Shown: in pieces, positions 4,017 to 33,602 of the stretch
How positions within the stretch are numbered: position 1 is the stretch's first letter
Layout of the letters: each line of letters begins with the position of its first letter
NCBI GenBank assembly: GCA_024400195.1
Contig: JAKSNC010000017.1
Location: 1-39,118, forward strand
DNA length: 39,118 bases
Direction: 5' to 3'
From: Bacteroidales bacterium
GTDB taxonomy: Bacteria; Bacteroidota; Bacteroidia; Bacteroidales; F082
Translations under genes and position numbers: made by a program
Notes under the pieces: generated by a model
What the model was told of the DNA's origin: nothing
Databases searched by the model: none
The model's input: only the letters and a program-made list of their open reading frames with translations

Positions 4017-5222
4017 TTATTCGACTTTGCCTTTTTGCAGTTTGGCGCGCGTGAATGGCTTTTCCCTGTCGAATAGGTATCTGTAGGTTATGTGCGTCTT
4101 GCAAAGTTCCGCCCCGACGCTCTTAGCCAGTTTAATCATTGCCGGATTAAAGTCACCTATCCAATTGAGTTGCAAGTCTTTATACTTAAACCTTTTCTTT
4201 ATGGCCTGAGCTTCTAACGAGCAGACGAGGCCGGCTTCGAGGCCTTTGCGCTGATGTTCCGGGACGACGCCGAAAGCCAACGAGATAGCTCTATCGCAGA
4301 TTCTCGAGACCTTAATCCTCCAGAAAATCCTCAGTTTGCTAATGATGTTGTTTTTTCCATGAAGGCCCTTGTAAATCTGGTTCATATCTATCATCATAAG
4401 GAAGAATCCGACGGGTTCGCCTTTGTAATAAGCAAAGTGCATCAGTCGCGGGTCGATAATAGGTTTGAGGCTCTTCATCAAGGCGAGGGCGTGTTGGCGC
4501 GTCAGTTTAGCGGAACCCGGGATGCTTCCCCACGCCTTATTGTATATAGTCAGGAAATCGTCGGCATATTTTTCAAGATGTCTTTTTTCAAGTATTCTGA
4601 AGGTATAGTCGGGATTCTCCGAAATTCTCAGAGCCTTTTCATGAAGGATGGGGTCGAAACCGCCGAGGCTCATATTACGATGATAAGTAAGTTGTTTAAA
4701 GAAGTCTTTAAAGCCGTAATTTTCAAACAGTTTTGCGTAGTAAGGATAGTTATACGGCATATTGTATATCGGGTCGGTGAAGCCATCGACGAGGCATCCC
4801 CAGAAATAGTCGCGGTCGCCGAAATTGATAGGCGCGTCCATTGCCTCCTGACCGTGTGCCTTAAGCCATTCCTTAGCAGCGTCAAACATCATATTGGCTG
4901 CTTCCTGATTGTCGATGCAGTCGAAGAAGCCGCATCCGCCCGTAGGTTGTCCGTTCTCCTCATTGGCATAATTGCGAGACGTCTTCTCATCATAAAATGC
5001 CGCGATACGCCCCACAACATGTCCCCTCTCGTCTTTGAGGAGATACCTCACTGCATCACCGTGACGAAAGAGTTTGTTTTTCGACTTGTCGAAGACTGCT
5101 TCCACCTCGTCATCCATCGGTCTGACGTAGTGAGTATCCTTTTTATATAATTTTGATGGAAAGCCAAGCCACAATTTGGAATCTTTTGCCGTCTTGACCT
5201 CCGATAAGGTAAAAAGCGCCAT
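4017..5222 (-). CDS. GNAT-like acyltransferase fold protein
   Basis: A 401-residue cytoplasmic protein. ATG at 5222 is preferred to the TTG at 5228. The C-terminal half shows an acetyltransferase motif A, ISLAFGVVPEHQRKGLEAGL (QRxGxEA loop at about residues 324-330), followed by NPAMIKLAKSVGAELCKTHITYRY, typical of the last strand and helix of GNAT proteins. The N-terminal half has the arrangement of large uncharacterised GNAT-like proteins of the YghO type (KLYKKDTHYVRPMDDEVEAVFD; PINFGDRDYFWGCLVDGF). An acetyl- or aminoacyl-transfer role is likely but the substrate is unknown. It is a monocistronic minus-strand gene that converges on ferritin. Confidence 0.7.
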   Translation of the reverse strand: MALFTLSEVKTAKDSKLWLGFPSKLYKKDTHYVRPMDDEVEAVFDKSKNKLFRHGDAVRYLLKDERGHVVGRIAAFYDEKTSRNYANEENGQPTGGCGFFDCIDNQEAANMMFDAAKEWLKAHGQEAMDAPINFGDRDYFWGCLVDGFTDPIYNMPYNYPYYAKLFENYGFKDFFKQLTYHRNMSLGGFDPILHEKALRISENPDYTFRILEKRHLEKYADDFLTIYNKAWGSIPGSAKLTRQHALALMKSLKPIIDPRLMHFAYYKGEPVGFFLMMIDMNQIYKGLHGKNNIISKLRIFWRIKVSRICDRAISLAFGVVPEHQRKGLEAGLVCSLEAQAIKKRFKYKDLQLNWIGDFNPAMIKLAKSVGAELCKTHITYRYLFDREKPFTRAKLQKGKVE

Positions 5223-5318
5223 GCTCAAAAATTTTGTGCAAAGTTCCGAAAAAATAAGGACTTATAAAAGAAAAAAAATAATTTTCACTTTTTTTGTCGG
5301 ATGTATGAAAAATATCCG

Positions 5319-5326
5319 TACCTTTG
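5319..5326 (+). promoter_or_regulatory. -7 promoter element TACCTTTG of tRNA-Glu
   Basis: TACCTTTG lies 20 bases before the mature tRNA, and a TTTTTTG stretch about 22 bases further upstream (5290-5296) fits the -33 element of Bacteroidota sigma-70-type promoters. Confidence 0.7.
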
Positions 5327-5345
5327 CACTCGCAAAACGACGGTT

Positions 5346-5419
5346 GGTCTCTTCGTCTAGTCTGGTCAGGACGTCAGGTTTTCATCCTGGTAACAGGGGT
5401 TCAAATCCCCTAGAGACTA
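5346..5419 (+). tRNA. tRNA-Glu (anticodon TTC)
   Basis: A complete cloverleaf can be folded: acceptor stem GGTCTCT (5346-5352) with AGAGACT (5412-5418), a D arm, an anticodon stem GTCAGG/CCTGG around loop TTTTCAT with anticodon TTC, and a T arm with GGTTCAAATCC. The first acceptor pair is G-U. The 3' CCA is not encoded. TTC reads GAA and GAG (glutamate). Confidence 0.93.
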
Positions 5420-5476
5420 CAAAAATCAAGAGCTGCCTAAAAATGGCGGCTCTTTTTATTTTTAATGTTTTAGCAA

Positions 5477-6436
5477 ATGAAACTTCAGGTCATAATAGGT
5501 AAACAGAATAATCCGTATCTGAATCTCGCCGTGGAAAACGACATCATTGAAAACGGTGGCGACGATGTTGTGACTCTTTTCCTTTGGAAAAACGGGCATA
5601 CCGTTGTGATCGGCGCAAATCAGAATCCTTATACGGAATGCGATGTCAAGGCACTTTACGCCGACGGAGGCTGTGTCTCGCGGCGTAGAACCGGCGGTGG
5701 TGCCGTCTATCATGACCTCGGAAACCTCAACTTCTCGTTCATCGCCGACAAGAAGACTTATAACGTCAGAAAACAGATGTCGGTGATACAGAAAGCTTTA
5801 CAGGATTTTGGCCTCAATGCCGAAGTAACCGGGCGCAACGACATCGCACTTGACGGGAGGAAGTTCTCCGGAAACGCCTTCAGGCTCACCGACAGGCGCG
5901 GGCTTCATCACGGCACGCTATTAATAAAAACTGATTATCAACTAATTGCAAAATATCTAAAAATCAATCCGGCGAAACTGCAGAAACACGGCGTGAAATC
6001 GGTCGGCAGCCGCGTCATCAATCTTTCGGAAGTGGCCGACATAACGTCCGACAACATCATCCCCCACCTCATCAAAGCATTCGAAAACATCTACGACGGC
6101 ATAGTTGAATTTGTCGATTTCGACTCTTTGTGCACCGAAAAAATCAGAAAAGAAGCCGAATATATCGCCGGCGACGAATATTTGTTCGCAAAATGGCGCA
6201 GTTTCAAGGCAAAACGCACGGCGGTATTTTCATGGGGCATCGTAGAGATTGACATCAACATTGACGAAGAACACGGCATCATCAAAGATGTCGAGATAGC
6301 ATCCGACGGACTTGACACGGAAATCATCATAGAGGCGAAAAAACTGCTCATCGGAGCACGGACAGACGCAAAACCACAAATATCCGACAAAGGGTTTAAG
6401 AACGAAATCGAAGACATCTTATCATTGATTTTTTGA
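5477..6436 (+). CDS. lplA: lipoate-protein ligase A
   Basis: A 319-residue cytoplasmic enzyme that adenylates lipoate and attaches it to lysines of lipoyl domains (2-oxoacid dehydrogenases, glycine cleavage H protein). The LplA signature is clear: RRRTGGGAVYHDLGN at about residues 69-83, the adenylate-binding GRNDIALDGRKFSGNA with the invariant lysine near K129, and HHGTLLI near 144-150. An accessory C-terminal domain (about 240-319) is present, so it resembles full-length LplA rather than an LplA/LplB half enzyme. It lies 57 bases after tRNA-Glu with no clear promoter between. The TGA stop is the first part of a TTGAC-rich repeat. Confidence 0.93.
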   Translation: MKLQVIIGKQNNPYLNLAVENDIIENGGDDVVTLFLWKNGHTVVIGANQNPYTECDVKALYADGGCVSRRRTGGGAVYHDLGNLNFSFIADKKTYNVRKQMSVIQKALQDFGLNAEVTGRNDIALDGRKFSGNAFRLTDRRGLHHGTLLIKTDYQLIAKYLKINPAKLQKHGVKSVGSRVINLSEVADITSDNIIPHLIKAFENIYDGIVEFVDFDSLCTEKIRKEAEYIAGDEYLFAKWRSFKAKRTAVFSWGIVEIDINIDEEHGIIKDVEIASDGLDTEIIIEAKKLLIGARTDAKPQISDKGFKNEIEDILSLIF

Positions 6437-6469
6437 CGACTTAGCTTCTTGACTTTTCGACTTTTTGAC
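6431..6469. repeat. degenerate TTTTTGAC tandem repeat at the lplA stop codon
   Basis: Four imperfect copies of a TTTTGAC/CTTGACT unit begin in the lplA TGA stop and run up to the TATCTTTG promoter element of the next gene. It belongs to the GTCAAA/TTTGAC repeat family found at several junctions in the window. Confidence 0.6.
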
Positions 6470-6477
6470 TATCTTTG
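6470..6477 (+). promoter_or_regulatory. -7 promoter element TATCTTTG of the AAA/nuclease gene
   Basis: TATCTTTG begins 30 bases before the ATG at 6500. The leader that follows includes a 21-base block (6486-6506) that is repeated exactly at 10174-10194, with the same 30-base spacing from the -7 element. Confidence 0.75.
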
Positions 6478-6499
6478 CGGCAGTTAAAACAACAAGATT

Positions 6500-8077
6500 A
6501 TGGGAATCTACCTCAATCCGAACAACGTACTGCTTCGTCAAGACCGCAATGCTGATATTTTTATTGATAAATCATTAATTATCAGTGAACTAAACAAACT
6601 TATAAACTCAAGGGACAAGTTTCTGTGCGTCTCGCGTCCGCGCCGTTTCGGTAAAAGTATGGCCGGAAACATGATTTCGGCTTATTATTCAAAAGGCTGC
6701 GATTCCCGCGAGTTGTTCAAGGATTTGAAGATTGCCCAACATCCAAGCTTCGAGAAATATCTCAACAAGTTGAACGTCGTCAAGTTCGACCTGAATGGTT
6801 TTTATATGAACTACGGCAATGAATTTCTTCAGGTTATGCAGGAAAAAATAATGAGAGACTTTGCACGTGAATATCCTGACGTGGATTTTTCTCATTGCCG
6901 CAATTTCGGCGACTGTATGATAGAAGTCTATGCCGCGATGGGTGAAACATTCGTTATCATCATTGATGAATACGATGTTTTGATACGTGAAGAAGCACCA
7001 CAATCACTATTCAAAGATTATTTGGCGTTTCTGAATGCACTCTTCAAAAATGCCGACCTCTCGCCGGCGATTTCGCTCGCCTATCTGACCGGAATTCTGC
7101 CCATCGTGCGCGACAAAATCCAGTCGAAACTGAATCTTTTTACCGAATATTCGATGACCGATGCCGGACGTTTAACGGAATTTGTCGGTTTTACTGCAGA
7201 AGAAACAAAAGGCCTTTGCGAACAGTACGGCATGGACTACGACGAATGCCGACGCTGGTACGACGGATACGATATGGGGAACATCAAAGAAATATTCAGT
7301 CCGCGTTCCGTCGTTAGTGCGATGGAAAGAAAACGTTTCGGCAGTTATTGGACACAGACAGGCTCATACGAAGCCTTGAAACTCTACATTTTAATGAATT
7401 TCGATGGCATGCGTGACGACGTCGTGACTATGATCGGAGGCGGAAAAGTCGATGTGAACGTATATAAGTACTTGAACACGATGACGGATTTTCACTCAAA
7501 AGACGACGTGTTTACATATTTAATACATCTCGGTTATCTCGCCTACGACAGTGAAACAAAGCAATGTTACATACCAAACAGTGAAATTCGCGAACAATGG
7601 GTAATTTCTGTTGAATACGAAGCTGATTATAAGCCCATAATCAAACTTATCAACGACTCGAAACAACTTCTTGAGGCCACGATAAACAAAGACGCGGCTG
7701 CCGTCGCCTCCGCTTTGACCGAGTCGCATATGCGTGCCACAAACCCATTGACGTACAACAACGAAGCGTCGTTCCAGAGCGCAATCGGCCTCGCCTATTT
7801 CTACGCGAACCTGAAATATACAGTCATCAAGGAACTCCCGACCGGCAAAGGCTACGCGGATTTGGCTCTTATTCCGTACGTTCCAAATATTCCGGCGATG
7901 ATTATCGAGTTGAAAAACAACAAGTCGGCGGAATCGGCGATAAACCAGATTAAAGAGAAAAAATACGACGATCTTCTTGAACATTACCGTGGCAGAATGC
8001 TTTTCGTCGGCATAAATTATGATGAAAAGACGAAGGAACACGAATGTGTTATTGAGGAGCTAGAAGTTAGAAGTTAG
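6500..8077 (+). CDS. AAA-ATPase-like / PD-(D/E)XK nuclease family protein (DUF1703 type), copy 1
   Basis: A 525-residue protein of the Bacteroidota-enriched family combining an N-terminal AAA-ATPase-like domain with a C-terminal PD-(D/E)XK nuclease-like domain. The family Walker A region is SRPRRFGKS (residues 45-53); Walker B is VIIIDEYD (D156, E157). The nuclease core is GYADLALI (D454) followed by MIIELKNNKS (E470, K472), with a NQIKEKKYDD helix after it. The biological role of the family is unsettled; defence, mobile-element and housekeeping roles have been suggested. Both active sites look intact. The last residues and the TAG stop are encoded inside a heptamer tandem repeat. It is 29% longer in its flanks than its paralogue at 32052-33602 is similar, and the two differ substantially in sequence, so they are not a recent duplication. 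Confidence 0.85.
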   Translation: MGIYLNPNNVLLRQDRNADIFIDKSLIISELNKLINSRDKFLCVSRPRRFGKSMAGNMISAYYSKGCDSRELFKDLKIAQHPSFEKYLNKLNVVKFDLNGFYMNYGNEFLQVMQEKIMRDFAREYPDVDFSHCRNFGDCMIEVYAAMGETFVIIIDEYDVLIREEAPQSLFKDYLAFLNALFKNADLSPAISLAYLTGILPIVRDKIQSKLNLFTEYSMTDAGRLTEFVGFTAEETKGLCEQYGMDYDECRRWYDGYDMGNIKEIFSPRSVVSAMERKRFGSYWTQTGSYEALKLYILMNFDGMRDDVVTMIGGGKVDVNVYKYLNTMTDFHSKDDVFTYLIHLGYLAYDSETKQCYIPNSEIREQWVISVEYEADYKPIIKLINDSKQLLEATINKDAAAVASALTESHMRATNPLTYNNEASFQSAIGLAYFYANLKYTVIKELPTGKGYADLALIPYVPNIPAMIIELKNNKSAESAINQIKEKKYDDLLEHYRGRMLFVGINYDEKTKEHECVIEELEVRS

Positions 8078-18203: not shown

Positions 18204-20111
18204 ATGGCAAGAAGCATGAGAAAATGGCGTGTCGAAGACTCAGCCGAGTTGTACAACATCAACAATTGGGGTATTAACTATTTCTCTATCAATGAGAAAG
18301 GAAATGTCGTGGTGACTCCACGCGAAGGCTGCGTCCCTATCGACCTTCGCGAACTCGTCGATGAGCTGCAGTTGCGCGACGTGTCGGCTCCGATGCTGAT
18401 TCGTTTTCCCGACATCTTAGACACGCGTATTGAGACTATCGACTCCTGTTTCCGTCATGCTGCGGAAGAATACGACTATAAAGGCAAAAACTTCATCGTG
18501 TTTCCAATCAAGGTGAATCAGATGCGCCCCGTTGTTGAGGAAATCGTCAGCCACGGCAAAAAGTTCAACATCGGGCTCGAAGCCGGCTCCAAACCCGAAC
18601 TTCACGCCATCATCGCATCCAACACCGACACCGACTCGCTGATAATATGCAACGGATATAAAGACGAGAGTTTCATCGAACTCGCACTTTTAGCGCAGAA
18701 GATGGGACGAATGATTATCATCGTCGTCGAGAAACTCAACGAACTGAAACTCATTGTCAAAGTGGCTAAACGTCTCAAAGTCACGCCGATGATAGGAATG
18801 AGAATCAAACTGTCGAGTTCGGGAAGCGGCAAATGGGAAGACTCAGGCGGCGATGGTTCCAAATTCGGCCTCAACTCGTCGGAACTGCTTGAAGCACTTG
18901 AATATCTTGAGAAAAACGAAATCAAAAACTGGCTGAAACTCGTTCATTATCACATCGGAAGCCAGGTCAATAAGATAAGGAGCATCAAACTCGCGCTGCG
19001 TGAAGCGGCACAGTTTTACGTTCAACTCCACAAACTTGGTTACAACATCGAGTTTGTCGATGTCGGCGGCGGTCTCGGTGTCGATTACGACGGTTCGCGC
19101 TCGTCGAACAGTGCGAGCAGTGTCAACTACAGCATTCAGGAATATGTCAACGACGCCGTGTTCAGCGTCGTCGATGCCTGCGACAAGAACGGACTCGCCC
19201 ACCCCAACATCATCACCGAATCGGGACGCGCACTCACGGCTCATCATTCAGTGCTGATTTTTGAAGTCCTCGAAACGGCTTCTCTCCCGACTTGGGACGA
19301 TGACGAGGAAGTGAAAGACGACGACCATGAACTCATCAAAGACCTGTACGAAGCTTGGGACAACCTCACCAGCAAACAGTCGTCGATGCTTGAGACATGG
19401 CACGATGCGCAGCAGATCCGCGAAGAAGCCCTCGACATGTTCAGCCTCGGAATGCTCGATTTGAAGACGCGCGCCAAGATAGAACGCCTGTTCTGGTCGG
19501 TGGCGATGGAGATAAACCAAATGGCAGCCAATATGAAACGCGTGCCGGAAGAACTCGACCAGCTATCGAAACTCTTAGCAGACAAATACTTCTGCAACTT
19601 CTCACTGTTCCAGTCGCTGCCAGACGCATGGGCTATCGACCAAGTCTTTCCAGTCATGCCGATTCACCGCTTGGACGAATATCCCGACAGACTTGCGACG
19701 CTTCAGGACATAACCTGCGACTCCGACGGCAAACTCACGACCTACGTCTCAAGCCGCACGATGTCGCACAATCTCCCTGTTCATTCGCTCGGCAAAGAAC
19801 CCTACTACATCGGAGTCTTCTTAGTCGGTGCATATCAGGAAATCCTCGGCGACCTGCACAACCTCTTCGGCGACACAAACGCCGTCCACGTCTCCGTTGA
19901 CGAAAAAGGCTATTACATCGACCAAGTCATTGACGGCGAAACGGTGGCAGAAGTGCTTGAATATGTGCAATACAGCCCCAAAAAACTCGTCAGAAGCGTC
20001 GAGACATGGGTGACTTCCTGCGTCAAACAGGGTAAGATAACGGTTGAAGAAGGCAAGGAATTCCTGTCGAACTACCGCTCCGGACTTTACGGCTATACCT
20101 ACCTCGAATAA
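18204..20111 (+). CDS. speA: biosynthetic arginine decarboxylase
   Basis: A 635-residue PLP-dependent enzyme of the alanine racemase-like (fold III) class that decarboxylates arginine to agmatine, the first step of polyamine synthesis by the agmatine route. Features seen: the PLP-binding lysine in FPIKVNQ (K103), the HYHIGSQ segment, the glycine-rich FVDVGGGLGVDYDG loop that binds the cofactor phosphate, ITESGRA, and the catalytic cysteine motif CDSDG (C505) completing the active site across the dimer. Length agrees with SpeA (about 630-660). It has its own promoter. The Card1-like nuclease gene follows after 30 bases on the same strand with no terminator or clear promoter between. Confidence 0.95.
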   Translation: MARSMRKWRVEDSAELYNINNWGINYFSINEKGNVVVTPREGCVPIDLRELVDELQLRDVSAPMLIRFPDILDTRIETIDSCFRHAAEEYDYKGKNFIVFPIKVNQMRPVVEEIVSHGKKFNIGLEAGSKPELHAIIASNTDTDSLIICNGYKDESFIELALLAQKMGRMIIIVVEKLNELKLIVKVAKRLKVTPMIGMRIKLSSSGSGKWEDSGGDGSKFGLNSSELLEALEYLEKNEIKNWLKLVHYHIGSQVNKIRSIKLALREAAQFYVQLHKLGYNIEFVDVGGGLGVDYDGSRSSNSASSVNYSIQEYVNDAVFSVVDACDKNGLAHPNIITESGRALTAHHSVLIFEVLETASLPTWDDDEEVKDDDHELIKDLYEAWDNLTSKQSSMLETWHDAQQIREEALDMFSLGMLDLKTRAKIERLFWSVAMEINQMAANMKRVPEELDQLSKLLADKYFCNFSLFQSLPDAWAIDQVFPVMPIHRLDEYPDRLATLQDITCDSDGKLTTYVSSRTMSHNLPVHSLGKEPYYIGVFLVGAYQEILGDLHNLFGDTNAVHVSVDEKGYYIDQVIDGETVAEVLEYVQYSPKKLVRSVETWVTSCVKQGKITVEEGKEFLSNYRSGLYGYTYLE

Positions 20112-20141: not shown

Positions 20142-21350
20142 ATGGCCACCATACTCATCACGACTTTGAGCGAAAACACGATTCCGTGTGTCCAACTCAT
20201 CAAGGAAATGAAAGACGAAATCGATGATTATTTCTTCGTGACCACAAAGGAGATAGAGTACTACGGTTCCCGCACCTGGATAGGAGACACTCTCGGCATC
20301 GACACGACGCATTTCGGCATCGTCGAAGCCTTCCTGTGGGATTCTGTCAGCGAAACACTCGACAAACAGGATTTTTCAAAATACGACAGAATCATCGTCA
20401 ACATAAAGTGCGGCACCAAAGTGATGTTCGCGTCAACGTACTACTACTTCCTGATGAAATATCCACAAACGGAATTCATCTACATCTACCAGATCAACAA
20501 AATCTACCGTTGGAAATTAACGCCCGACAGATTCAGCGACTTTGAAGAAGTAAAAATCTTCAGCAAGAAGCTGAGCCTCAGCGAATATCTTGCCGCCAAC
20601 GGAGTCTCCGTAGTGCAGTCGGAACCCATCGATTATCCTTTCGAGATGTCGGAGAAGATATTCAAAGCCTATTGCCGGCTTGAAAACGAGCAGTTCGCGG
20701 GGGAAAAAGAAATCATCAGGCTGAAACGAAACAAAGTACTAAGCGGAGACGAATTTGACACTGTAAAACCCTATCTCGACTTCCTCGGATTCGTTCCGGA
20801 AGAAGACGGAAAGTTGTCGAAGAAAGAGACGAAATTCCTTTCCGGAGAATGGTTCGAACAATATGTCGGCTTCAAAATAAAACAAGAACTCGGGCTTTCC
20901 GACGAAGACATCCTCATTGGCGCAGAAGTGAGAAAAAACGCCTATAAATACAGTAAAAACGACCCGATGGCACTTGTCGGAGCCGTAGCCGAATTAGAGA
21001 CTTCCGACAACGAAATGGACGTCATGTTCGTGTATAACAACGAGTTTTATTCAATAGAATGCAAGACATCCATCATTGACGCAGGCACCGGAAAAATCTT
21101 TCTCGGAGAGACAATATACAAATCCGATTCGCTTCAGTATCGTTTCGGAATACAGCCACACACGGCCATAATGACGTTGAGCGACATCTCGGAATGCGCC
21201 AAGACCGACGGCATCTTCGATAAAAACAAAGTCAGAAACCTCAACGGCATCATCAACAGAGCCAATATATCATTCATCAAGCTCGTTGACAAGAAAATCA
21301 TCCTCAACACGCCGCGTCTGTTTGACACGATAAACCCGAGTTGGAGGTAG
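20142..21350 (+). CDS. Card1/Can2-like CARF-domain nuclease (DUF1887 family)
   Basis: A 402-residue protein with the layout of Card1 (Can2), the type III CRISPR ancillary nuclease activated by cyclic tetra-adenylate. The N-terminal CARF domain (about 1-145) has ILITTLSENTIPCVQLIK, FFVTTKE and the ligand-loop strand IIVNIKCGTKVM (GTK at 91-93). A linker containing SLSEYLAANGVSV follows. The nuclease core has GEWFEQYV (about 235-242), then EMDVMFVYNNEFYSIECKTS, giving the PD-(D/E)XK residues D293, E306 and K308, plus the conserved upstream glutamate E239. All catalytic positions look intact. The loop is CGTK where Card1 has GGTK. No CRISPR array, cas10 or other cas gene is in the window. The gene follows speA by 30 bases and ends 2 bases from the convergent ABC transporter. 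Family is confident; activating ligand and role are not. Confidence 0.9.
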   Translation: MATILITTLSENTIPCVQLIKEMKDEIDDYFFVTTKEIEYYGSRTWIGDTLGIDTTHFGIVEAFLWDSVSETLDKQDFSKYDRIIVNIKCGTKVMFASTYYYFLMKYPQTEFIYIYQINKIYRWKLTPDRFSDFEEVKIFSKKLSLSEYLAANGVSVVQSEPIDYPFEMSEKIFKAYCRLENEQFAGEKEIIRLKRNKVLSGDEFDTVKPYLDFLGFVPEEDGKLSKKETKFLSGEWFEQYVGFKIKQELGLSDEDILIGAEVRKNAYKYSKNDPMALVGAVAELETSDNEMDVMFVYNNEFYSIECKTSIIDAGTGKIFLGETIYKSDSLQYRFGIQPHTAIMTLSDISECAKTDGIFDKNKVRNLNGIINRANISFIKLVDKKIILNTPRLFDTINPSWR

Positions 21351-21352
21351 TC

Positions 21353-23191
21353 TTAAACGCCGCCGATCGACTGCATCTGGGTGAGATGCCTATAGACACC
21401 GCCCTTCGCCAAGAGTTCGGTGTGCGTTCCGCGTTCAACGATTTGACCCTTAACCAAGACGACAATCTCGTCGGCATTCTGTATTGTTGAGAGACGATGC
21501 GCGATGACGATAGAAGTCCTGTTGCTCATAACCTTTGCAAGCGCATCTTGAACAAGTCGTTCGGATTCGGTGTCCAAAGCCGCCGTAGCCTCGTCAAGAA
21601 TAAGAACCGGCGGGTTTTTCAGGACGGCACGCGCAATGCTGATACGCTGTCTCTGACCGCCTGAAAGCGTCATTCCCCTATCGCCGATGACTGTGTCGTA
21701 ACCGTTTTCCAGATTCATGATAAACTCATGCGCATTAGCCACTTTTGCTGCCGCGATGACATCTTCCATCGAAGCACTCTCCATTCCGAAGGCGATATTG
21801 TTGAACACCGTGTCGTTGAACAGAATGCTCTCCTGCGTGACAATACCCATCATACCGCGCAAGTCGCTGATACGATACTCGCGGATGTCGATACCGTCAA
21901 CAGTGACAGAGCCATCGCACACGTCGTAGAAACGCGGCAGCAGGTCGGCCATAGTCGATTTTCCGCCTCCGCTTTCACCTACGAGTGCTATCATCTTTCC
22001 CTTCTTGATGGTGAGATTGATGTCCTTCAGCACGTCGCCGTTGCCATAACCAAACGTCACATTGTCGTATTTTATCTCATCCTTGAAGTCACTTATGCTG
22101 ACAGGGTTCTCTTTCTCAACGATAACTTCTTCTGCATCAAGCACTTCAAAGACACGATCAACGGCGGCGAGACCTTTTTGGACATTATAATAGCCCTGAG
22201 AGATGGCCTTCACTGGAGAGATAATCTGCGAGAAGACGGCCACGTATGCTATGAACGAAGCCGCGTCAAGACCGACACCGGCACCGCCGAGTATCAGACG
22301 ACCGCCAAACCAAAGTACAACACAGATGACGGCGGCTGAGAGGAACTCGCTCATCGGAGAACTCAACTCACGCTTGCGACTGACGAAACGCAGCAGACGA
22401 GCATATTTGTCGTTCTGCTCGTTGAAAGCCCTTTTCGAATAACCTATAGCATTGAAAGCCTTGATGATACGGAGGCCGGAGATGGATTCCTCCAAAGTGG
22501 AGATTATTCCGCCCAAACGCCACTGAGCCTCCTTCGAGTCCTTCTTCAGCGACTTGCCGATGGCACCGATAACCAAACCGGCGATAGGCAGCACCACGAG
22601 GACAAAGACGGTAAGCTGCCAGCTGACGAAGAGCATATACAGAAAATATCCAATGATGGTTATAGGATTCTTTATGAAGACATCGATATAATTCATCACG
22701 GAGACCTCTATCTCGTAAAGGTCAGTCGTAACACGCGCTATAATATCGCCCTTCTTATGCTTGCTGTAAAAAGCGAGTGGTAGAATTAAAATCTTGTGAT
22801 ACAGATCGTTACGCAAATCTCTAATTGGGTTAACCCTCACGTTGGCGATGTAGTACTGACCCATATATGTCGTAAGGTTACGGAGAAAAAACGCCGCCAC
22901 TACGAGGCAGCAGATGAAGAGAAGTGCACTATTCGGGCCTTTCGTCAGGATAAGGAAACTCAGATAATGGTCGAGGATGCCTTCTATCGACTTGACATCA
23001 AGGCCGAATTCAGGTAGCGGCATGACTTCCTGCGGAGGGTTAAAGAGCAGGTTGAGGAACGGCACTATCATCGTGAACGACAACAATGAGAAGATGACTG
23101 AGAAGATGTTCAGAATGAAATTTGCCACGACGCTGCCCCAATACGGTTTGACGTAGCCCATCATCCTGCGGAAGTTGCGGTTTTTCTTCAT
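21353..23191 (-). CDS. MsbA-like ABC exporter (fused permease and ATPase)
   Basis: A 612-residue half-transporter. An N-terminal six-helix permease domain (about 20-335) precedes a nucleotide-binding domain with Walker A GESGGGKS (405-412), Q-loop VTQES, signature LSGGQRQR (509-516), Walker B VLILDEA (529-535) and switch histidine IAHRLST. It would dimerise in the inner membrane and export a lipid, lipid-linked precursor or drug; MsbA-type lipid A flipping is plausible but cannot be settled from sequence. It starts 12 bases after the purB stop and is probably cotranscribed with purB. Its 3' end is only 2 bases from the end of the convergent Card1-like gene, with no terminator between. Confidence 0.92.
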   Translation of the reverse strand: MKKNRNFRRMMGYVKPYWGSVVANFILNIFSVIFSLLSFTMIVPFLNLLFNPPQEVMPLPEFGLDVKSIEGILDHYLSFLILTKGPNSALLFICCLVVAAFFLRNLTTYMGQYYIANVRVNPIRDLRNDLYHKILILPLAFYSKHKKGDIIARVTTDLYEIEVSVMNYIDVFIKNPITIIGYFLYMLFVSWQLTVFVLVVLPIAGLVIGAIGKSLKKDSKEAQWRLGGIISTLEESISGLRIIKAFNAIGYSKRAFNEQNDKYARLLRFVSRKRELSSPMSEFLSAAVICVVLWFGGRLILGGAGVGLDAASFIAYVAVFSQIISPVKAISQGYYNVQKGLAAVDRVFEVLDAEEVIVEKENPVSISDFKDEIKYDNVTFGYGNGDVLKDINLTIKKGKMIALVGESGGGKSTMADLLPRFYDVCDGSVTVDGIDIREYRISDLRGMMGIVTQESILFNDTVFNNIAFGMESASMEDVIAAAKVANAHEFIMNLENGYDTVIGDRGMTLSGGQRQRISIARAVLKNPPVLILDEATAALDTESERLVQDALAKVMSNRTSIVIAHRLSTIQNADEIVVLVKGQIVERGTHTELLAKGGVYRHLTQMQSIGGV

Positions 23192-23203: not shown

Positions 23204-24559
23204 TTATTCAACAAAACCGTAGCCTGTATAATTTTCCGGCGTTATAGCGTGCATCTCCGCCTTTACTTTGTCGGAGACCGGAAGTTCATCAATAAACGCG
23301 TCAATCGAGCTGCGGGTAACTTTCTCGTTAGTGCGAGTCAGTTTCTTGAGGAGTTCGTATGCGCCTTCGACCTGTTCGCGGCGCAGAATAGTCTGGACGG
23401 CTTCAGCCACAACCGCGTAGTTATTTTCGAGATCGGAACGCAGTTTGTCTTCATTAAGAATGAGTTTACCGAGTCCTTTCATCAGCGACGCGAGGGCGAT
23501 GAGCGTATGAGCCAACGGCACTCCGATGTTGCGTGTCACCGTCGAGTCGGTCAGGTCGCGCTGCATGCGGCTGATAGGCAGTTTTCGACTCAGATGTTCA
23601 AACAAAGCGTTGGCCATACCGAGATTACCTTCGGCGTTTTCAAAATCGATAGGATTGACTTTGTGCGGCATTGCTGAGCTTCCCACTTCTCCAGCCTTGA
23701 TTTTCTGTTTAAAATAGTCCATTGAGACGTACATCCAAATGTCGCGTGCGAAGTCAATGAGGATTGTGTTGATACGCTTCATCGTGTCGAAGTAGGCAGC
23801 CATATAGTCGTAATGTTCAATCTGTGTCGTGGTCTGCTGCCTCACGAGGCCGAGTTTCAGTTCCACAAAGTCGTTAGCGAAATCGCGCCAGTTGATGTCC
23901 GGATATGCTATCTTATGAGCGTTCATATTACCTGTTGCGCCGCCGAATTTGGCCGAGAATGGAGCGTCGTCGAGCATCTCAAGTTGATCGCTGAGGCGTT
24001 CTGCGAAGACGTAGATTTCCTTACCGAGGTGTGTCGGGCTGGCAGGCTGACCATGAGTGCGGGCGAGCATCGGGACATCGGCCCATTCGCGGGCGAGTTC
24101 CTCGATTTTATCGACAAGAGATTCCAACATTGGAAGCATGACTTTTTCATGAGCGTCGCGCATTGACATTGGAACCGCAGTGTTGTTGATGTCCTGGGAA
24201 GTCAGACCGAAATGGACAAATTCTTTAAAGGCCGAAATGCCGAAAGCATCGAAACGGCGTTTCAGAAAATATTCTACCGCCTTGACATCGTGGTTCGTCT
24301 CTTTCTCAATATCCTTAATCTCCTGAGCATCAGACAGTTGAAAATCCTGATATATCTTACGGAGCCTATCGTAGTTCTTTTTGTCGAAACCTGAAAGCTG
24401 CGGCAGCGGAATCTCGCATAGCGCGATAAAATATTCCACTTCGACGTTGACGCGGTAGCGGATGAGGGCGAACTCTGAAAAATACTCCGAAAGTTGTTCT
24501 GTTTTAGCGCGATACCTGCCATCAACAGGCGATACGGCCGTTAATCTTGAGAAATCCAT
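23204..24559 (-). CDS. purB: adenylosuccinate lyase
   Basis: A 451-residue enzyme of the fumarase/aspartase superfamily that releases fumarate from SAICAR and from adenylosuccinate in purine synthesis; active as a cytoplasmic homotetramer. Seen: SPVDGRYRAKT at the N-terminus, KETNHDVKAVEYF (H90), TSQDINNT, the catalytic RTHGQPASPT (H169) and the superfamily signature GSSAMPHKVNP (293-303). Length and motifs match the E. coli-type PurB (about 450). It has its own minus-strand promoter and is followed by the ABC exporter gene. Confidence 0.96.
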   Translation of the reverse strand: MDFSRLTAVSPVDGRYRAKTEQLSEYFSEFALIRYRVNVEVEYFIALCEIPLPQLSGFDKKNYDRLRKIYQDFQLSDAQEIKDIEKETNHDVKAVEYFLKRRFDAFGISAFKEFVHFGLTSQDINNTAVPMSMRDAHEKVMLPMLESLVDKIEELAREWADVPMLARTHGQPASPTHLGKEIYVFAERLSDQLEMLDDAPFSAKFGGATGNMNAHKIAYPDINWRDFANDFVELKLGLVRQQTTTQIEHYDYMAAYFDTMKRINTILIDFARDIWMYVSMDYFKQKIKAGEVGSSAMPHKVNPIDFENAEGNLGMANALFEHLSRKLPISRMQRDLTDSTVTRNIGVPLAHTLIALASLMKGLGKLILNEDKLRSDLENNYAVVAEAVQTILRREQVEGAYELLKKLTRTNEKVTRSSIDAFIDELPVSDKVKAEMHAITPENYTGYGFVE

Positions 24560-24578
24560 CCTTTTTAAATTTATGCTG

Positions 24579-24586
24579 CAAAGATA
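24579..24586 (-). promoter_or_regulatory. -7 promoter element TATCTTTG of purB
   Basis: The minus strand reads TATCTTTG 20 bases ahead of the purB ATG, matching the Bacteroidota consensus. No PurR-like operator is recognisable. Confidence 0.7.
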
Positions 24587-24613
24587 AGAATTTTTTGAAG
24601 AAAATGATAGTTA

Positions 24614-24694
24614 GAAAGTCGAGAGTCGAGGGTCGAGGGTTGAGAGTTGAGAGTCTAAAATGTCAAATCGTCAAAATCGTCAAAATCGTCAAAA
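24614..24694 (+). repeat. compound tandem repeat: heptamer GAGRGTY then 8/9-mer GTCAAAATC
   Basis: Six heptamers (GAAAGTC, GAGAGTC, GAGGGTC, GAGGGTT, GAGAGTT, GAGAGTC) at 24614-24655 are followed by GTCAAATC, two GTCAAAATC and a partial copy at 24662-24694. The array separates the divergent purB and ORF6N genes and ends 5 bases before the -7 element of the latter. Confidence 0.95.
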
Positions 24695-24699
24695 AACCG

Positions 24700-24707
24700 T
24701 ATCTTTG
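24700..24707 (+). promoter_or_regulatory. -7 promoter element TATCTTTG of the ORF6N gene
   Basis: TATCTTTG lies 11 bases before the ATG at 24718. The -33 region falls within the GTCAAAATC tandem repeat, so repeat number could change promoter geometry. Confidence 0.7.
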
Positions 24708-24717
24708 CGCAATAAAA

Positions 24718-25539
24718 ATGAAACCGATGGAAGAACCGAAAACCGAATCAATGGGACAACTTTTTGATAAGAACGAACAAATGTCCGTTACTGACAATAA
24801 TATTCGTTCCATAATATGCTCGATTCGAGGCAGACAAGTCATTCTTGATAGAGATTTGGCCGTCTTATATCAAGTTGATGTCGCTCAAATGAATCGGCAG
24901 GTAAAGCGAAATATAGAACGTTTTCCTGATGACTTCATGTTTCGTCTTACTAAAACCGAGTGGGATCTTTTGAAATGCCATTTTGGCATTTCAAAAGAAA
25001 AAGGAGGAGACAGAGCTTTGCCGAATGCCTTCACTGAACAAGGCATATCAATGCTTTCAGGTTTGTTACGAAGCGAAGTTGCGATAAAGATTAACATCCT
25101 CATTATGAGGACTTTTGCCGCCATGCGCCAGTTCGTAACAGCAAACGCAGGACTGTTCCAACGAGTAGAAACTCTCGAGCGGCAGCAAATATCTTTCGAT
25201 GAGAAAATTGTCGACATTTTGAATAAGATTGAAGAACTGAATCCTGCTCCGCCGACAGAACAGTTATTCTCCTCGGGCTGTATTTGGGACGCGTGGAATT
25301 TCCTGAGCGAGCTGATACGCAATGCCAAACGGCGCGTCTTTCTTATCGACAATTTCGTTGACGAACGCACTTTGTCGCTTTTGGACAAACGCGAAGATGA
25401 TGTACAATGCACGGTTTACACCCGCTATAACGCCCAGACGAACACCGATTTCGAGAAACACAACGCACAGATTGTCGTGTCACTCGACCGCACGAATGAC
25501 ATGAATTTTTTGTTTTTCACGCGAGTTTCGCAGGTTTGA
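24718..25539 (+). CDS. ORF6N-domain DNA-binding protein, probably truncated at the C-terminus
   Basis: A 273-residue protein; the start at 24718 is chosen because it directly follows the promoter, while the longer in-frame extension would run through the tandem repeat and purB leader. The ORF6N domain (about 25-115) is clear: VILDRDLAVLYQVDVAQMNRQVKRN, FPDDFMFRLT and ALPNAFTEQGISMLSGLL. ORF6N domains occur in phage and mobile-element proteins and probably bind DNA. The C-terminal part (about 180-255) carries the family's phospholipase D-like segment (RRVFLIDNFVDERTLSLL) but the usual HDRFLIID-type motif and the last 40 or so residues are missing. The frame runs into a low-complexity tail (NFLFFTRVSQV) overlapping a CGCAG-containing intergenic repeat. 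Likely decayed. Confidence 0.8.
   Translation: MKPMEEPKTESMGQLFDKNEQMSVTDNNIRSIICSIRGRQVILDRDLAVLYQVDVAQMNRQVKRNIERFPDDFMFRLTKTEWDLLKCHFGISKEKGGDRALPNAFTEQGISMLSGLLRSEVAIKINILIMRTFAAMRQFVTANAGLFQRVETLERQQISFDEKIVDILNKIEELNPAPPTEQLFSSGCIWDAWNFLSELIRNAKRRVFLIDNFVDERTLSLLDKREDDVQCTVYTRYNAQTNTDFEKHNAQIVVSLDRTNDMNFLFFTRVSQV
24967..24997. repeat. 14-bp perfect inverted repeat inside the ORF6N gene
   Basis: Arms at 24967-24980 and 24984-24997 with a TTT loop (core TGAAATGCCA/TGGCATTTCA). It encodes LLKCHFGISK in the gene. It would fold into a stable mRNA hairpin; it may also simply reflect local codon constraints or a regulator site. Confidence 0.85.
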
Positions 25540-28439: not shown

Positions 28440-29012
28440 TTATACTTCTAATTCATCTATTTCGGCATCAATAACAAACATTGTTCCGTCTTTGGCAATT
28501 AAAACATTTTTCGGTTTTATATCCCACAATAATAATCGGCTGTTTGTGAACTTTCCATCCTCATCAGTCGGTTCAAAACCACGGGCTTGCATATATTCCA
28601 CTATCTCCTCTCTTGTCGCAAAACGAGAATTAACGACAAATGGTTGAGAAAATATCGGAAATACACTTGAACGGCTCATTACTTGTACACCAACAAGACG
28701 CATCGCTGTTTCGGGAAAAAGTTCGTTATACAGATTCACCCTGTCTAACAATTTCGCCAAATCTCCGCCGACATGATTAAGCGTATTCATTTTGTACAGA
28801 ACATTGCCTATCGGATCTAACCAATTTTCATATTCACTACCACTTTGAAAGACAATCAGATGGCGTTCTTTAGCAAAATCACCGAAAACGTCAATAACAC
28901 GATGATTTTCAATCGCCCATTGAACGGTTGCGCGACATTGCTCTACCGAACCGAGTCCCGCAAGGACTTCTCGTAGGCTTCGTGCATTTCTCTGTGGTGA
29001 CGAATTTCCCAT
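28440..29012 (-). CDS. protein kinase-like domain of polyvalent-protein type (Kinase-PolyVal), frameshifted at its 5' end
   Basis: A reading frame of 190 residues. From about residue 26 onward it matches the pattern of the kinase domain found in phage and mobile-element polyvalent proteins: QWAIENHRVIDVFGDFAKER, GSEYENWLDP, VLYKMNTLNHVG, LFPETAMRLVGVQ, FSQPFVV, REEIVEYMQARGF, LLWDIKPKNVLI and MFVIDAEI. The D-x-K-x-x-N element (WDIKPKNV) and the late D resemble kinase catalytic and metal-binding residues. The first 25 or so residues here are out-of-frame; the true N-terminus appears to be the 47-codon frame at 28943-29086, so one base seems missing near 28943-28960. It is monocistronic on the minus strand and may be inactive. 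Confidence 0.7.
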   Translation of the reverse strand: MGNSSPQRNARSLREVLAGLGSVEQCRATVQWAIENHRVIDVFGDFAKERHLIVFQSGSEYENWLDPIGNVLYKMNTLNHVGGDLAKLLDRVNLYNELFPETAMRLVGVQVMSRSSVFPIFSQPFVVNSRFATREEIVEYMQARGFEPTDEDGKFTNSRLLLWDIKPKNVLIAKDGTMFVIDAEIDELEV

Positions 29013-32051: not shown

Positions 32052-33602
32052 CTACTCAACAATCCACTTGTCGATATTTCTGCATTCCGTGCTGAAGTTC
32101 ACGCCGATTTTGATGATATTTCTTTCGTCCTTTGCAAATGGTTCGGCGTAACCTTTTTCATTGATTTGCGTCAACGCCTCTTCAGCCGATTTGTTGAATT
32201 TGAATTCAAAAATGTAGATATAATCTTTTGTTTTAACCGTCATATCCATGCGGCCCTTGTTGGTATGAGTTTCAATATCAACGTAATAGCCGCAGAGAGA
32301 AGTGAGGATGAACATCACGCTTTGGAAATGGCGTTCCTGTTCGGGCTCGAGTTCGTAGGGACACGCGCTAAGAAACGACTGCAGTCTTTCCATAAAGTCC
32401 TCGATATTTCCTTCGCGCAGCGAGCGCACAAAACGCCTTATCTCAAAACCGGAATCGACTTCATCGACATTCGTATAGCTCGGAATGAGGAAACGCACAA
32501 AGCCCTGTTTCACTTCCTGATTTGGAAAACCCAGAAGATAAAGACCGAATTCCCTGTCGTAACCCTTTATCGTCAGATAACCGCTCTGATAAATCACCGG
32601 CAGCGGGTTTGTCGAAGCAATATCGACGCTGTTCAAAACATCGCTCACGACTTCCTCTTTCTCTATTCTCGACAAATCGTACTGATGATGTTTGAGAAGT
32701 TCGACAAGATACGTCGGAGTGCCCGTCTCGAACCAATAATAGTCAATTTTATTATTAACGAAGGCGTTAAGCAGGCTGAAAGGATTATAGACGCCGGGCA
32801 AATCTTCTTCACAAAAATGATAGCCGTCATAGTTCTCGCGAAGCGCGGCGTATGCCTCGTCAATAGTCATCTTTTGGGCGGAAGCTAATTCCGACACTTC
32901 GATCTTGAAATTTTTACGGAGTTCATCTTCCGTTATGCCGCAGATGTCGAAATACTGCGGAAGCATTGAGAGGTCGCGGAGATTGTTCAGATCGCTGAAG
33001 ACGCTCACTTTGCCGAACTTCGTCACGCCGGTGAGGAACGCGAACCTGATGCAGCCGTCCATCGATTTCAGAGCTCCGTAGAAGCCTTTCAGAGTGGCGC
33101 GGTAGGCATCTTGAAGTTCCACGTTTCCAATGGCTTGAAGTAATGGTTTATCATATTCGTCAACGAGAATCACCACTTGGCGGCCGGTTTTCTCGTAGGC
33201 CAAACGTATCACTTGTGTGAAACGTTCCTCAATGCTGCGGTTACGATATGTGTCACCGTACTTTGACTCCCACTGTTCAAGATGTTTGTTCAGTTCGGCC
33301 TCAAGACCGGTTTTATCCTTATAGTTACGGGTGTTTAAATCCAAATGAAGCACGGGATATTCTGTCCAATCGTGTTCCAACTTTTCTATCGCAAGGTCTT
33401 TAAAAAGTTCGCGTTTCCCTAAGAAATACGACTCTAAAGTATTGAGCAGCAGACTCTTTCCAAAACGGCGCGGACGAGAAAGGAAATAATATTTTCCTTC
33501 ACTGACAAGTTTAAAGACGATGGCTGTTTTGTCAACGTATTTAAAATTCTTGTTTCTCAAGTCCTCGAAGCTCTGTATGCCGATTGGAAGTTTCTGTCCC
33601 AT
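32052..33602 (-). CDS. AAA-ATPase-like / PD-(D/E)XK nuclease family protein (DUF1703 type), copy 2
   Basis: A 516-residue paralogue of the 6500-8077 protein. It has the family N-terminus (LPIGIQSFEDLRNKNFKYVDKT), Walker A-like SRPRRFGKS (42-50), Walker B VVILVDEYD (D148, E149), the FAFLTGVTKFGKVSVFSDLNN segment typical of the family, and a C-terminal nuclease core GRMDMTVKTKDYIYIFEFKF (D453, E466, K468) followed by LTQINEKGYAEPF. Both active sites look intact. Sequence differs widely from copy 1, so they represent different subfamilies. The BatA-type gene starts 2 bases downstream, so the two probably share a transcript. Heptamer repeats lie just upstream of its promoter. Function of the family is not established. 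Confidence 0.9.
   Translation of the reverse strand: MGQKLPIGIQSFEDLRNKNFKYVDKTAIVFKLVSEGKYYFLSRPRRFGKSLLLNTLESYFLGKRELFKDLAIEKLEHDWTEYPVLHLDLNTRNYKDKTGLEAELNKHLEQWESKYGDTYRNRSIEERFTQVIRLAYEKTGRQVVILVDEYDKPLLQAIGNVELQDAYRATLKGFYGALKSMDGCIRFAFLTGVTKFGKVSVFSDLNNLRDLSMLPQYFDICGITEDELRKNFKIEVSELASAQKMTIDEAYAALRENYDGYHFCEEDLPGVYNPFSLLNAFVNNKIDYYWFETGTPTYLVELLKHHQYDLSRIEKEEVVSDVLNSVDIASTNPLPVIYQSGYLTIKGYDREFGLYLLGFPNQEVKQGFVRFLIPSYTNVDEVDSGFEIRRFVRSLREGNIEDFMERLQSFLSACPYELEPEQERHFQSVMFILTSLCGYYVDIETHTNKGRMDMTVKTKDYIYIFEFKFNKSAEEALTQINEKGYAEPFAKDERNIIKIGVNFSTECRNIDKWIVE

What the first reader, a model, noticed from the sequence alone, without database searches (positions are those of the whole stretch)
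20142..21350. Card1-like CARF nuclease without a CRISPR locus in the window
The protein shows the complete Card1/Can2 layout: a CARF domain with a VNIKCGTK ligand loop and a PD-(D/E)XK core with D293, E306 and K308. Card1 is activated by cyclic tetra-adenylate made by type III CRISPR Cas10. Here no array, cas10 or other cas gene lies within 20 kb on the left or 18 kb on the right; the neighbours are housekeeping genes (speA, purB). Either it answers a distant type III locus, or it is wired to another cyclic-nucleotide source. The Gly-to-Cys change (CGTK for GGTK) in the ligand loop may alter specificity.
Basis: partly seen in the sequence, partly recalled or inferred. Interest (0 to 1): 0.75.

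Follow-up and report, generated by a model that had tools for sequence, protein, structure and literature searches.

The report
Card1-type CARF nuclease without CRISPR
This gene encodes a nuclease of the kind that type III CRISPR systems switch on with a small ring-shaped signal, but no such system was found in its genome and the signal-binding loop is changed, so it is probably a former CRISPR effector that now works alone or for another signal.

Summary
Window 20142-21350 (+) encodes an intact 402-aa protein with a Card1-type CARF domain and a PD-(D/E)XK nuclease domain. The window is a whole contig without an array or, in the 19 proteins scanned, a cas gene. In the 1.84-Mb, 89.7% complete genome, profiles for Cas10, RAMPs, SMODS and mCpol found nothing; the one Cas1 belongs to a type II locus. 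A tree puts the protein in a supported 11-member clade in which 6 of the 10 others lie beside cas10: it descends from type III effectors. Catalytic residues and the equivalents of four Can2 cA4 contacts are kept, but near-invariant sensor positions are changed: N16C, T89K, G90C. Gly-to-Cys alone is not telling (two cas10-linked relatives have it); T89K occurs in none of 80 relatives. Two or more loop departures: 4 of 8 proteins from Cas10-negative genomes, 1 of 44 cas10-linked ones; a post hoc count with too few independent events for proof. Best reading: a chromosomal ex-type III effector, nuclease intact, sensor decoupled or retuned. Orphan CARF genes are known; the loop pattern is the new lead.

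The parts
20142..21350 (+). CARF - PD-(D/E)XK nuclease, 402 aa, Card1/Can2 family
20151..20588 (+). CARF sensor domain (residues 4-149)
   Evidence: PF23400 CARF_Card1, E 8.4e-18
20400..20420 (+). ligand loop N87-I-K-C-G-T-K93; consensus N-[LI]-T-G-G-T-K; K89 and C90 depart, K93 kept
20820..21167 (+). PD-(D/E)XK nuclease domain (residues 227-342) with E239, D293, E306, K308
   Evidence: PF09002 Card1_endonuc; invariant positions
18204..20111 (+). speA, biosynthetic arginine decarboxylase, ends 30 bp upstream of the CARF gene
   Evidence: Pfam
21353..23191 (-). ABC transporter (ABC_membrane + ABC_tran), convergent, next to purB
   Evidence: Pfam; ABC-purB order kept in 29 of 29 relatives' loci examined

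Best explanation
It is a chromosomal orphan of the Card1/Can2 family, descended from type III CRISPR effectors and now without a detectable type III system in its genome. As in Card1/Can2, two subunits should bind a cyclic nucleotide across the paired CARF domains, which brings the nuclease domains into a conformation that nicks DNA and cuts RNA with a divalent metal. The nuclease half is intact. The sensor half keeps the four main phosphate/base contacts but has a changed loop (T89K, G90C) and N16C, so it most likely no longer has standard cA4 gating. Either it is retuned to another nucleotide signal or its dependence on cA4 is weakened. Shown here: family, descent, absence of detectable cas10, intact catalytic residues, changed loop. 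Inferred: dimerisation, nuclease activity, ligand and role.
For: Domain matches. Tree: the window sits in an 11-row clade (SH-aLRT 97); of its 10 other members 6 have a Cas10 match on the locus and 2 more (L105 by one gene, L108 by five) have genes like those that flank Cas10 elsewhere. Own genome negative for Cas10, RAMPs (41), SMODS (42) and mCpol (60). At columns conserved in 95% or more of relatives, 0 of 7 nuclease columns and 2 of 9 CARF columns are changed (N16C, T89K), more than in 79 of the 80 relatives. Loop with two or more departures: 4 of 8 proteins from Cas10-negative genomes against 1 of 44 cas10-linked proteins, Fisher p 0.0012. Codon use is typical of the window, third closest of 25 ORFs, so not an obvious recent import.
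Against: The genome is 89.67% complete in 54 contigs, so a type III locus could be missing. The loop pattern was found by looking, not predicted. On the tree there are only 5 independent supported pairs, of which 2-3 agree, 0 oppose and the rest do not differ, too few for significance. Four proteins from Cas10-negative genomes have fewer than two departures: L124, L129 and L144 have none, G531's second copy has one (K93N). 31 of the 80 relatives with undecided CRISPR state were left out of the count; none of them has two departures and 3 have one. At the 90% threshold the window's 3 CARF departures are equalled or exceeded by 6 relatives, three of them cas10-linked (L139, L157, L170), and it has one nuclease departure, L337I. 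The four main cA4-contact residues are kept, which fits ordinary cA4 sensing. Host-like codon use cannot exclude import from a donor of similar composition.
Confidence: 0.55

Rival explanations
1. Ordinary ancillary effector: a type III system exists in the organism but lies in the missing part of the assembly or on a plasmid, and the protein answers its cA4.
For: 89.67% completeness and 54 contigs; S10, T35, K93 and Y114 kept; nearest relatives in the tree are mostly cas10-linked.
Against: No Cas10 or RAMP match; PF22335 does score the two Cas10s that my own profile had missed; Cas10 is rare in the genus, 3 of 99 genomes; 44 of 80 relatives' loci hold a Cas10 match close by, whereas this gene lies between housekeeping genes on a 39-kb contig; loop changes.
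Confidence: 0.2
2. Decaying relic: the gene outlived its CRISPR system and is drifting, as suggested in print for VC1899.
For: Changes fall in the sensor, as in VC1899 (PMC7969007, passages); two other Cas10-negative genomes have ORFs with partial Csx1 matches near the CARF gene (L088, L090); the window's end branch of 1.02 is long against the median of 0.43.
Against: Full-length ORF, 0 of 7 strongly conserved nuclease columns changed, window-typical codon use; two cas10-linked clade neighbours have end branches nearly as long, 0.91 and 0.98.
Confidence: 0.2
3. Eavesdropper: it waits for cyclic oligoadenylates made by type III systems on incoming plasmids or phages, or diffusing from them.
For: The four main cA4-contact residues are kept.
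Against: Loop changes are not expected if cA4 is the ligand. No positive evidence; whether cas10-bearing plasmids or phages reach this host was not tested.
Confidence: 0.05

Closest known systems
Card1 (6wxw) / Can2 (7bdv), DUF1887
   Same: Domain order, CARF_Card1 and Card1_endonuc families, catalytic D/E/K, residues equivalent to Can2 Ser19, Thr42, Lys99 and Tyr118 (S10, T35, K93, Y114; contacts from passages of PMC7969007, mapped by me on the alignments)
   Different: No type III locus found in the genome; N16C, T89K and G90C in the sensor; lone gene between speA and an ABC transporter, no Csx20 ring nuclease next to it
VC1899 (1xmx), orphan DUF1887 protein
   Same: Stands outside CRISPR; its loop also has Cys at the position of C90 (sequence NASCGLR)
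   Different: VC1899 lacks the four cA4-contact residues and is not cA4-activated (PMC7969007, passages read); the window protein keeps all four
L113/L121 orphan pair (genomes G299/G396)
   Same: Card1-type protein in genomes without a Cas10 match and with a two-residue loop change
   Different: Acidic change (SDG, SEG), and a Csx20-like gene lies next door
Cdn1 (8z4i), Can2-family effector
   Same: CARF + PD-(D/E)XK; its paper names T9, Q11, T37, K104 and Y124 as conserved ligand residues (PMC12825302, passages read)
   Different: Type III-B linked; about 20% identical to Card1/Can2 according to that paper; only a weak match to the window protein

Membership tests
Card1/Can2 (CARF + PD-(D/E)XK effector) | Card1-type CARF domain | tested here: met
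   PF23400, 65.2 bits against cut-off 24.6
Card1/Can2 (CARF + PD-(D/E)XK effector) | Card1-type nuclease domain with intact catalytic residues | tested here: met
   PF09002, 31.8 bits against cut-off 26.4; E239, D293, E306, K308 invariant
Card1/Can2 (CARF + PD-(D/E)XK effector) | Residues equivalent to Can2 Ser19, Thr42, Lys99, Tyr118 that contact cA4 | tested here: met
   S10, T35, K93, Y114 by alignment
Card1/Can2 (CARF + PD-(D/E)XK effector) | Conserved TGGTK ligand loop | tested here: not met
   KCGTK; T or S at 89 in 80 of 80 relatives, G at 90 in 74 of 80. A conserved feature seen here, not a published definition of the family
Card1/Can2 (CARF + PD-(D/E)XK effector) | Association with a type III CRISPR locus | tested here: not met
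   No Cas10 or RAMP match in the genome; genome 89.67% complete, so not final
Card1/Can2 (CARF + PD-(D/E)XK effector) | cA4-activated nuclease, homodimer | not testable with these tools
   Needs protein; structure prediction switched off
VC1899-like orphans | Loss of the Ser and Lys ligand contacts (Asp and Arg instead) | tested here: not met
   Window has S10 and K93; the genus's own group B has D at 10 in 20 of 26 and R at 93 in 26 of 26
CBASS effector | Adjacent or same-genome CD-NTase | tested here: inconclusive
   SMODS PF18144: no match; other CD-NTase families not searched

The most novel reading that the evidence does not exclude
Card1-type nucleases that leave CRISPR repeatedly change the same ligand loop while keeping the nuclease, so this protein is a retuned sensor-nuclease answering a nucleotide signal that Cas10 does not make, perhaps a household second messenger.
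Probability: 0.25. Interest if true: 0.7.

Novelty: new variant of a known kind. Interest (0 to 1): 0.42.

Why it matters
CARF genes without CRISPR have been noted since 2014 (PMC4012209, passages read), and the one orphan of this family whose testing I read about, VC1899, was not activated by cA4 (PMC7969007, passages read). A CRISPR-free relative that keeps the cA4-contact residues but has an altered loop, with similar changes in other Cas10-negative genomes, gives a concrete test of whether such orphans are relics or have been adopted by other nucleotide signals.

Tried and rejected
Gly-to-Cys as the specificity change: rejected as sole evidence, since CGTK occurs in cas10-linked L155 and in L096:9103-10134, whose contig also holds a Cas10 match. 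Empty-site comparison: failed. 29 of 29 relatives' loci keep ABC-purB, none shows speA or the CARF gene within 1.5 kb, and none of 12 longer regions shows speA. Mobile origin: no homologue found on plasmids, phages or, by two peptide patterns, in viral contigs. The first genome-contig scan with the single protein found none; the profile scan found 267 and kept 80. Cas10 calls with my own seeds were incomplete: L139 and L171 were missed and found by NCBIfam and Pfam. Of the 38 loci without a Cas10 by my seeds, only L101, L139 and L171 were re-examined with family libraries, and only with some of their genes, so others may hold a divergent Cas10.

Paper searches. Makarova 2020, the Card1 Nature paper and Jungfer 2024 are not held and were not seen. 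No title or abstract start in these listings reports the loop/Cas10 pattern; six papers were opened, as passages only.

Full report
What is there. The ORF at 20142-21350 (+) encodes 402 aa. Pfam gives a Card1-type CARF domain (PF23400, E 8.4e-18) and a Card1-like endonuclease domain (PF09002, E 1.2e-7), both over threshold. PADLOC's best model is CARF4-CARF_PDDEXK (E 1.1e-35). The best solved structures are Card1 and Can2; a profile of 14 relatives reaches Card1 at 7.7e-66, Can2 at 3.5e-39 and VC1899 at 1.6e-24. Chance is excluded. PF09002 has no second match in the genome.

Where it is. The window is the whole contig C9 of a 1.84-Mb, 54-contig, 89.67% complete genome. speA ends 30 bp upstream; an ABC transporter gene runs towards it and ends 2 bases downstream; purB follows. 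The repeat search shows no CRISPR-like array in the window. Pfam scans of 19 window proteins show no cas family.

Is there a signal maker in the genome? Cas10 (PF22335) gives no match and no first-look candidate. RAMPs (PF03787), SMODS CD-NTases (PF18144) and mCpol (PF18182) give no match. Of the 14 control genomes, PF22335 rings in 5, RAMPs in 4, SMODS in 3 (2 over cut-off) and mCpol in 1 (0 over cut-off), so the reach of the mCpol search is not shown. PF22335 scores 85 and 88 bits on two divergent Cas10s that my own seed profile had missed. Cas1 gives one match, on contig C6 next to Cas9 (TIGR01865) and Cas2, that is, a type II locus. Limits: about 10% of the genome may be missing, and other CD-NTase families were not searched.

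How common is this? In 99 genomes of the genus, 3 have Cas10, and 48 have a match to the window protein at E 1e-7 or better. A second group (B), about 28% identical to the window protein, has the loop NLAGG[NST]R. I read this loop in 36 loci: 27 loci (26 distinct sequences), and 9 more. 35 of these 36 genomes have no Cas10 match; the other, G159, has one and also a Card1-type gene close to its cas10. The remaining 10 genomes of the 48, besides the window's own and G060, were not classified by loop. Card1-type genes of the window's group (A) lie 3.7-5.4 kb from the Cas10 match in G060, G008 and G159. In 393 genomes of the order, 44 have Cas10; of 10 other genomes with a window-protein match at 1e-12 or better, 4 have it (G192, G207, G271, G422) and 6 do not (G299, G342, G396, G494, G499, G531; listed completeness 97, 85, 82, 90, 96 and 98%).

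Descent. A scan of the species-genome collection kept 80 relatives, the best of 267. 42 have a Cas10 match on the fetched DNA by my seeds, plus L139 and L171 by NCBIfam, so 44 of 80. 12 more have genes that resemble those flanking Cas10 elsewhere, 8 of them by a single gene; such genes may be other effectors, not only type III core genes. 24 show neither, mostly on short contigs; only L113 and L121 have about 10 kb on both sides and none. L101, in the window's own clade, has over 8 kb on each side with a Cas1 but no Cas10 match by my seeds. In a quick maximum-likelihood tree of 81 group A rows and 8 of the 26 group B rows, the window falls into an 11-row clade (SH-aLRT 97). Of its 10 other rows, 6 have a Cas10 match (L100, L102, L103, L106, L107, L109), 2 have flank-like genes (L105, one gene; L108, five) and 2 are undecided (L101, L104). 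Group B is a separate clade (support 100). The orphan state of the window protein is therefore most simply derived.

The sensor. Reading the alignments against the contacts given for Can2 (Ser19, Thr42, Lys99, Tyr118; PMC7969007, passages), the window has S10, T35, K93 and Y114, all as in the family. But N16 (N in 77 of 80), T89 (T in 76, S in 4) and G90 (G in 74) are C, K and C. N12 is a further change: Q in 67, H in 7 and N in 0 of 80; the residue that I take as its equivalent in Cdn1, Q11, contacts the ligand (PMC12825302, passages). At columns conserved in 95% or more of the other members, the window departs at 2 of 9 in the CARF domain and 0 of 7 in the nuclease; only L139 departs more in the CARF. 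At the 90% threshold it has 3 of 14 CARF departures, equalled or exceeded by 6 other members (L139, L121, L166, L113, L157, L170), of which L139, L157 and L170 are cas10-linked, and 1 of 11 nuclease departures (L337I). L139 lies in a type III-B locus with a CorA gene and has S10G, T35D and K93I.

Loop against CRISPR linkage. I compared 8 proteins from 7 genomes without a Cas10 match (window, G299, G396, G342, G494, G499 and two of G531) with 44 cas10-linked ones. Two or more departures at positions 89, 90 and 93: 4 of 8 against 1 of 44, Fisher p 0.0012. One or more: 5 of 8 against 2 of 44, p 0.0004. G299 and G396 share one locus, so events are fewer than proteins. 31 of the 80 relatives had an undecided state and were left out; none of them has two departures and 3 have one (L152, L161, L166). 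Independent pairs on supported branches: 5; for two or more departures 2-3 agree, 0 oppose, rest equal; for one or more, on average 2.9 agree and 0.3 oppose. This cannot reach significance. The measure was chosen after seeing the window's loop. I treat the pattern as a lead.

Working model. By analogy with Can2 and Card1, a homodimer would bind a cyclic nucleotide between its CARF domains and activate a metal-dependent, low-specificity nuclease. The nuclease half is intact and the gene reads as resident (codon use third closest to the window's average among 25 ORFs of 150 aa or more), which argues against simple decay, though its end branch of 1.02 is long against the tree's median of 0.43. 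The changed loop argues against unchanged cA4 gating, though the kept contacts allow it. I favour an ex-type III effector that has been decoupled or retuned (0.55), then an unseen type III partner (0.2), a relic (0.2) and eavesdropping (0.05).

Known and new. Makarova and colleagues stated in 2014 that every CARF family has genes not linked to CRISPR-Cas (PMC4012209, passages). VC1899 is a described orphan without cA4 activation (PMC7969007, passages). So the orphan state is not new. New here, as far as five paper searches show (listings and passages only), is an orphan that keeps the contacts but alters the loop, and the tentative link of loop change to absence of Cas10.

Noticed in passing
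L139 10001-11101 (Tannerella sp. MAG), CorA gene at 1337-2899, Cas10 at 4893-6584: A Card1-type nuclease in a type III-B locus with a CorA gene has lost three cA4-contact residues (S10G, T35D, K93I) but keeps the nuclease; it may answer SAM-AMP instead of cA4 (SAM-AMP activating CorA: abstract of PMC12255297 in a search listing).
   Followed up: partly
L060 7782-8939 and equivalents in L047-L062 (same genus as the window): Group B: a second CARF-nuclease family (NLAGG[NST]R loop) at a conserved chromosomal place; an LD-carboxypeptidase gene is near in 12 of 16 loci and a diacylglycerol-kinase-like gene in 13 of 16, often with pgk between; 35 of 36 genomes read have no Cas10 match. Looks like a vertically kept CRISPR-free CARF nuclease.
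   Followed up: partly
L113 and L121 (G299, G396), about 9.97-11.14 kb: Two species keep, in the same gene order, a Card1-type gene plus a Csx20-like gene and no type III genes found within about 10 kb; Csx20 is a cA4 ring nuclease (PMC12409355, passages), so a sensor/eraser pair may persist without Cas10.
   Followed up: partly
own genome contig C6:33000-43343 (L043 3322-10204): Type II CRISPR locus: Cas9 of 1551 aa, a 275-aa gene, Cas1, Cas2, then two repeats of at least 28 nt, 77 bp apart, near the contig end, so the array is probably cut by the assembly.
   Followed up: partly
window 24547-25539 (+) and 28440-29012 (-): ORF6N-domain gene (PADLOC PDC-S05, E 1.8e-83) and a Kinase-PolyVal gene, both of low GC (0.418 and 0.407), suggest small acquired pieces right of purB.
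   Followed up: no
window 6500-8077 (+) and 32052-33602 (-): Two AAA-ATPase_like + PDDEXK_9 genes in one contig, a repeated family whose role here is unknown.
   Followed up: no
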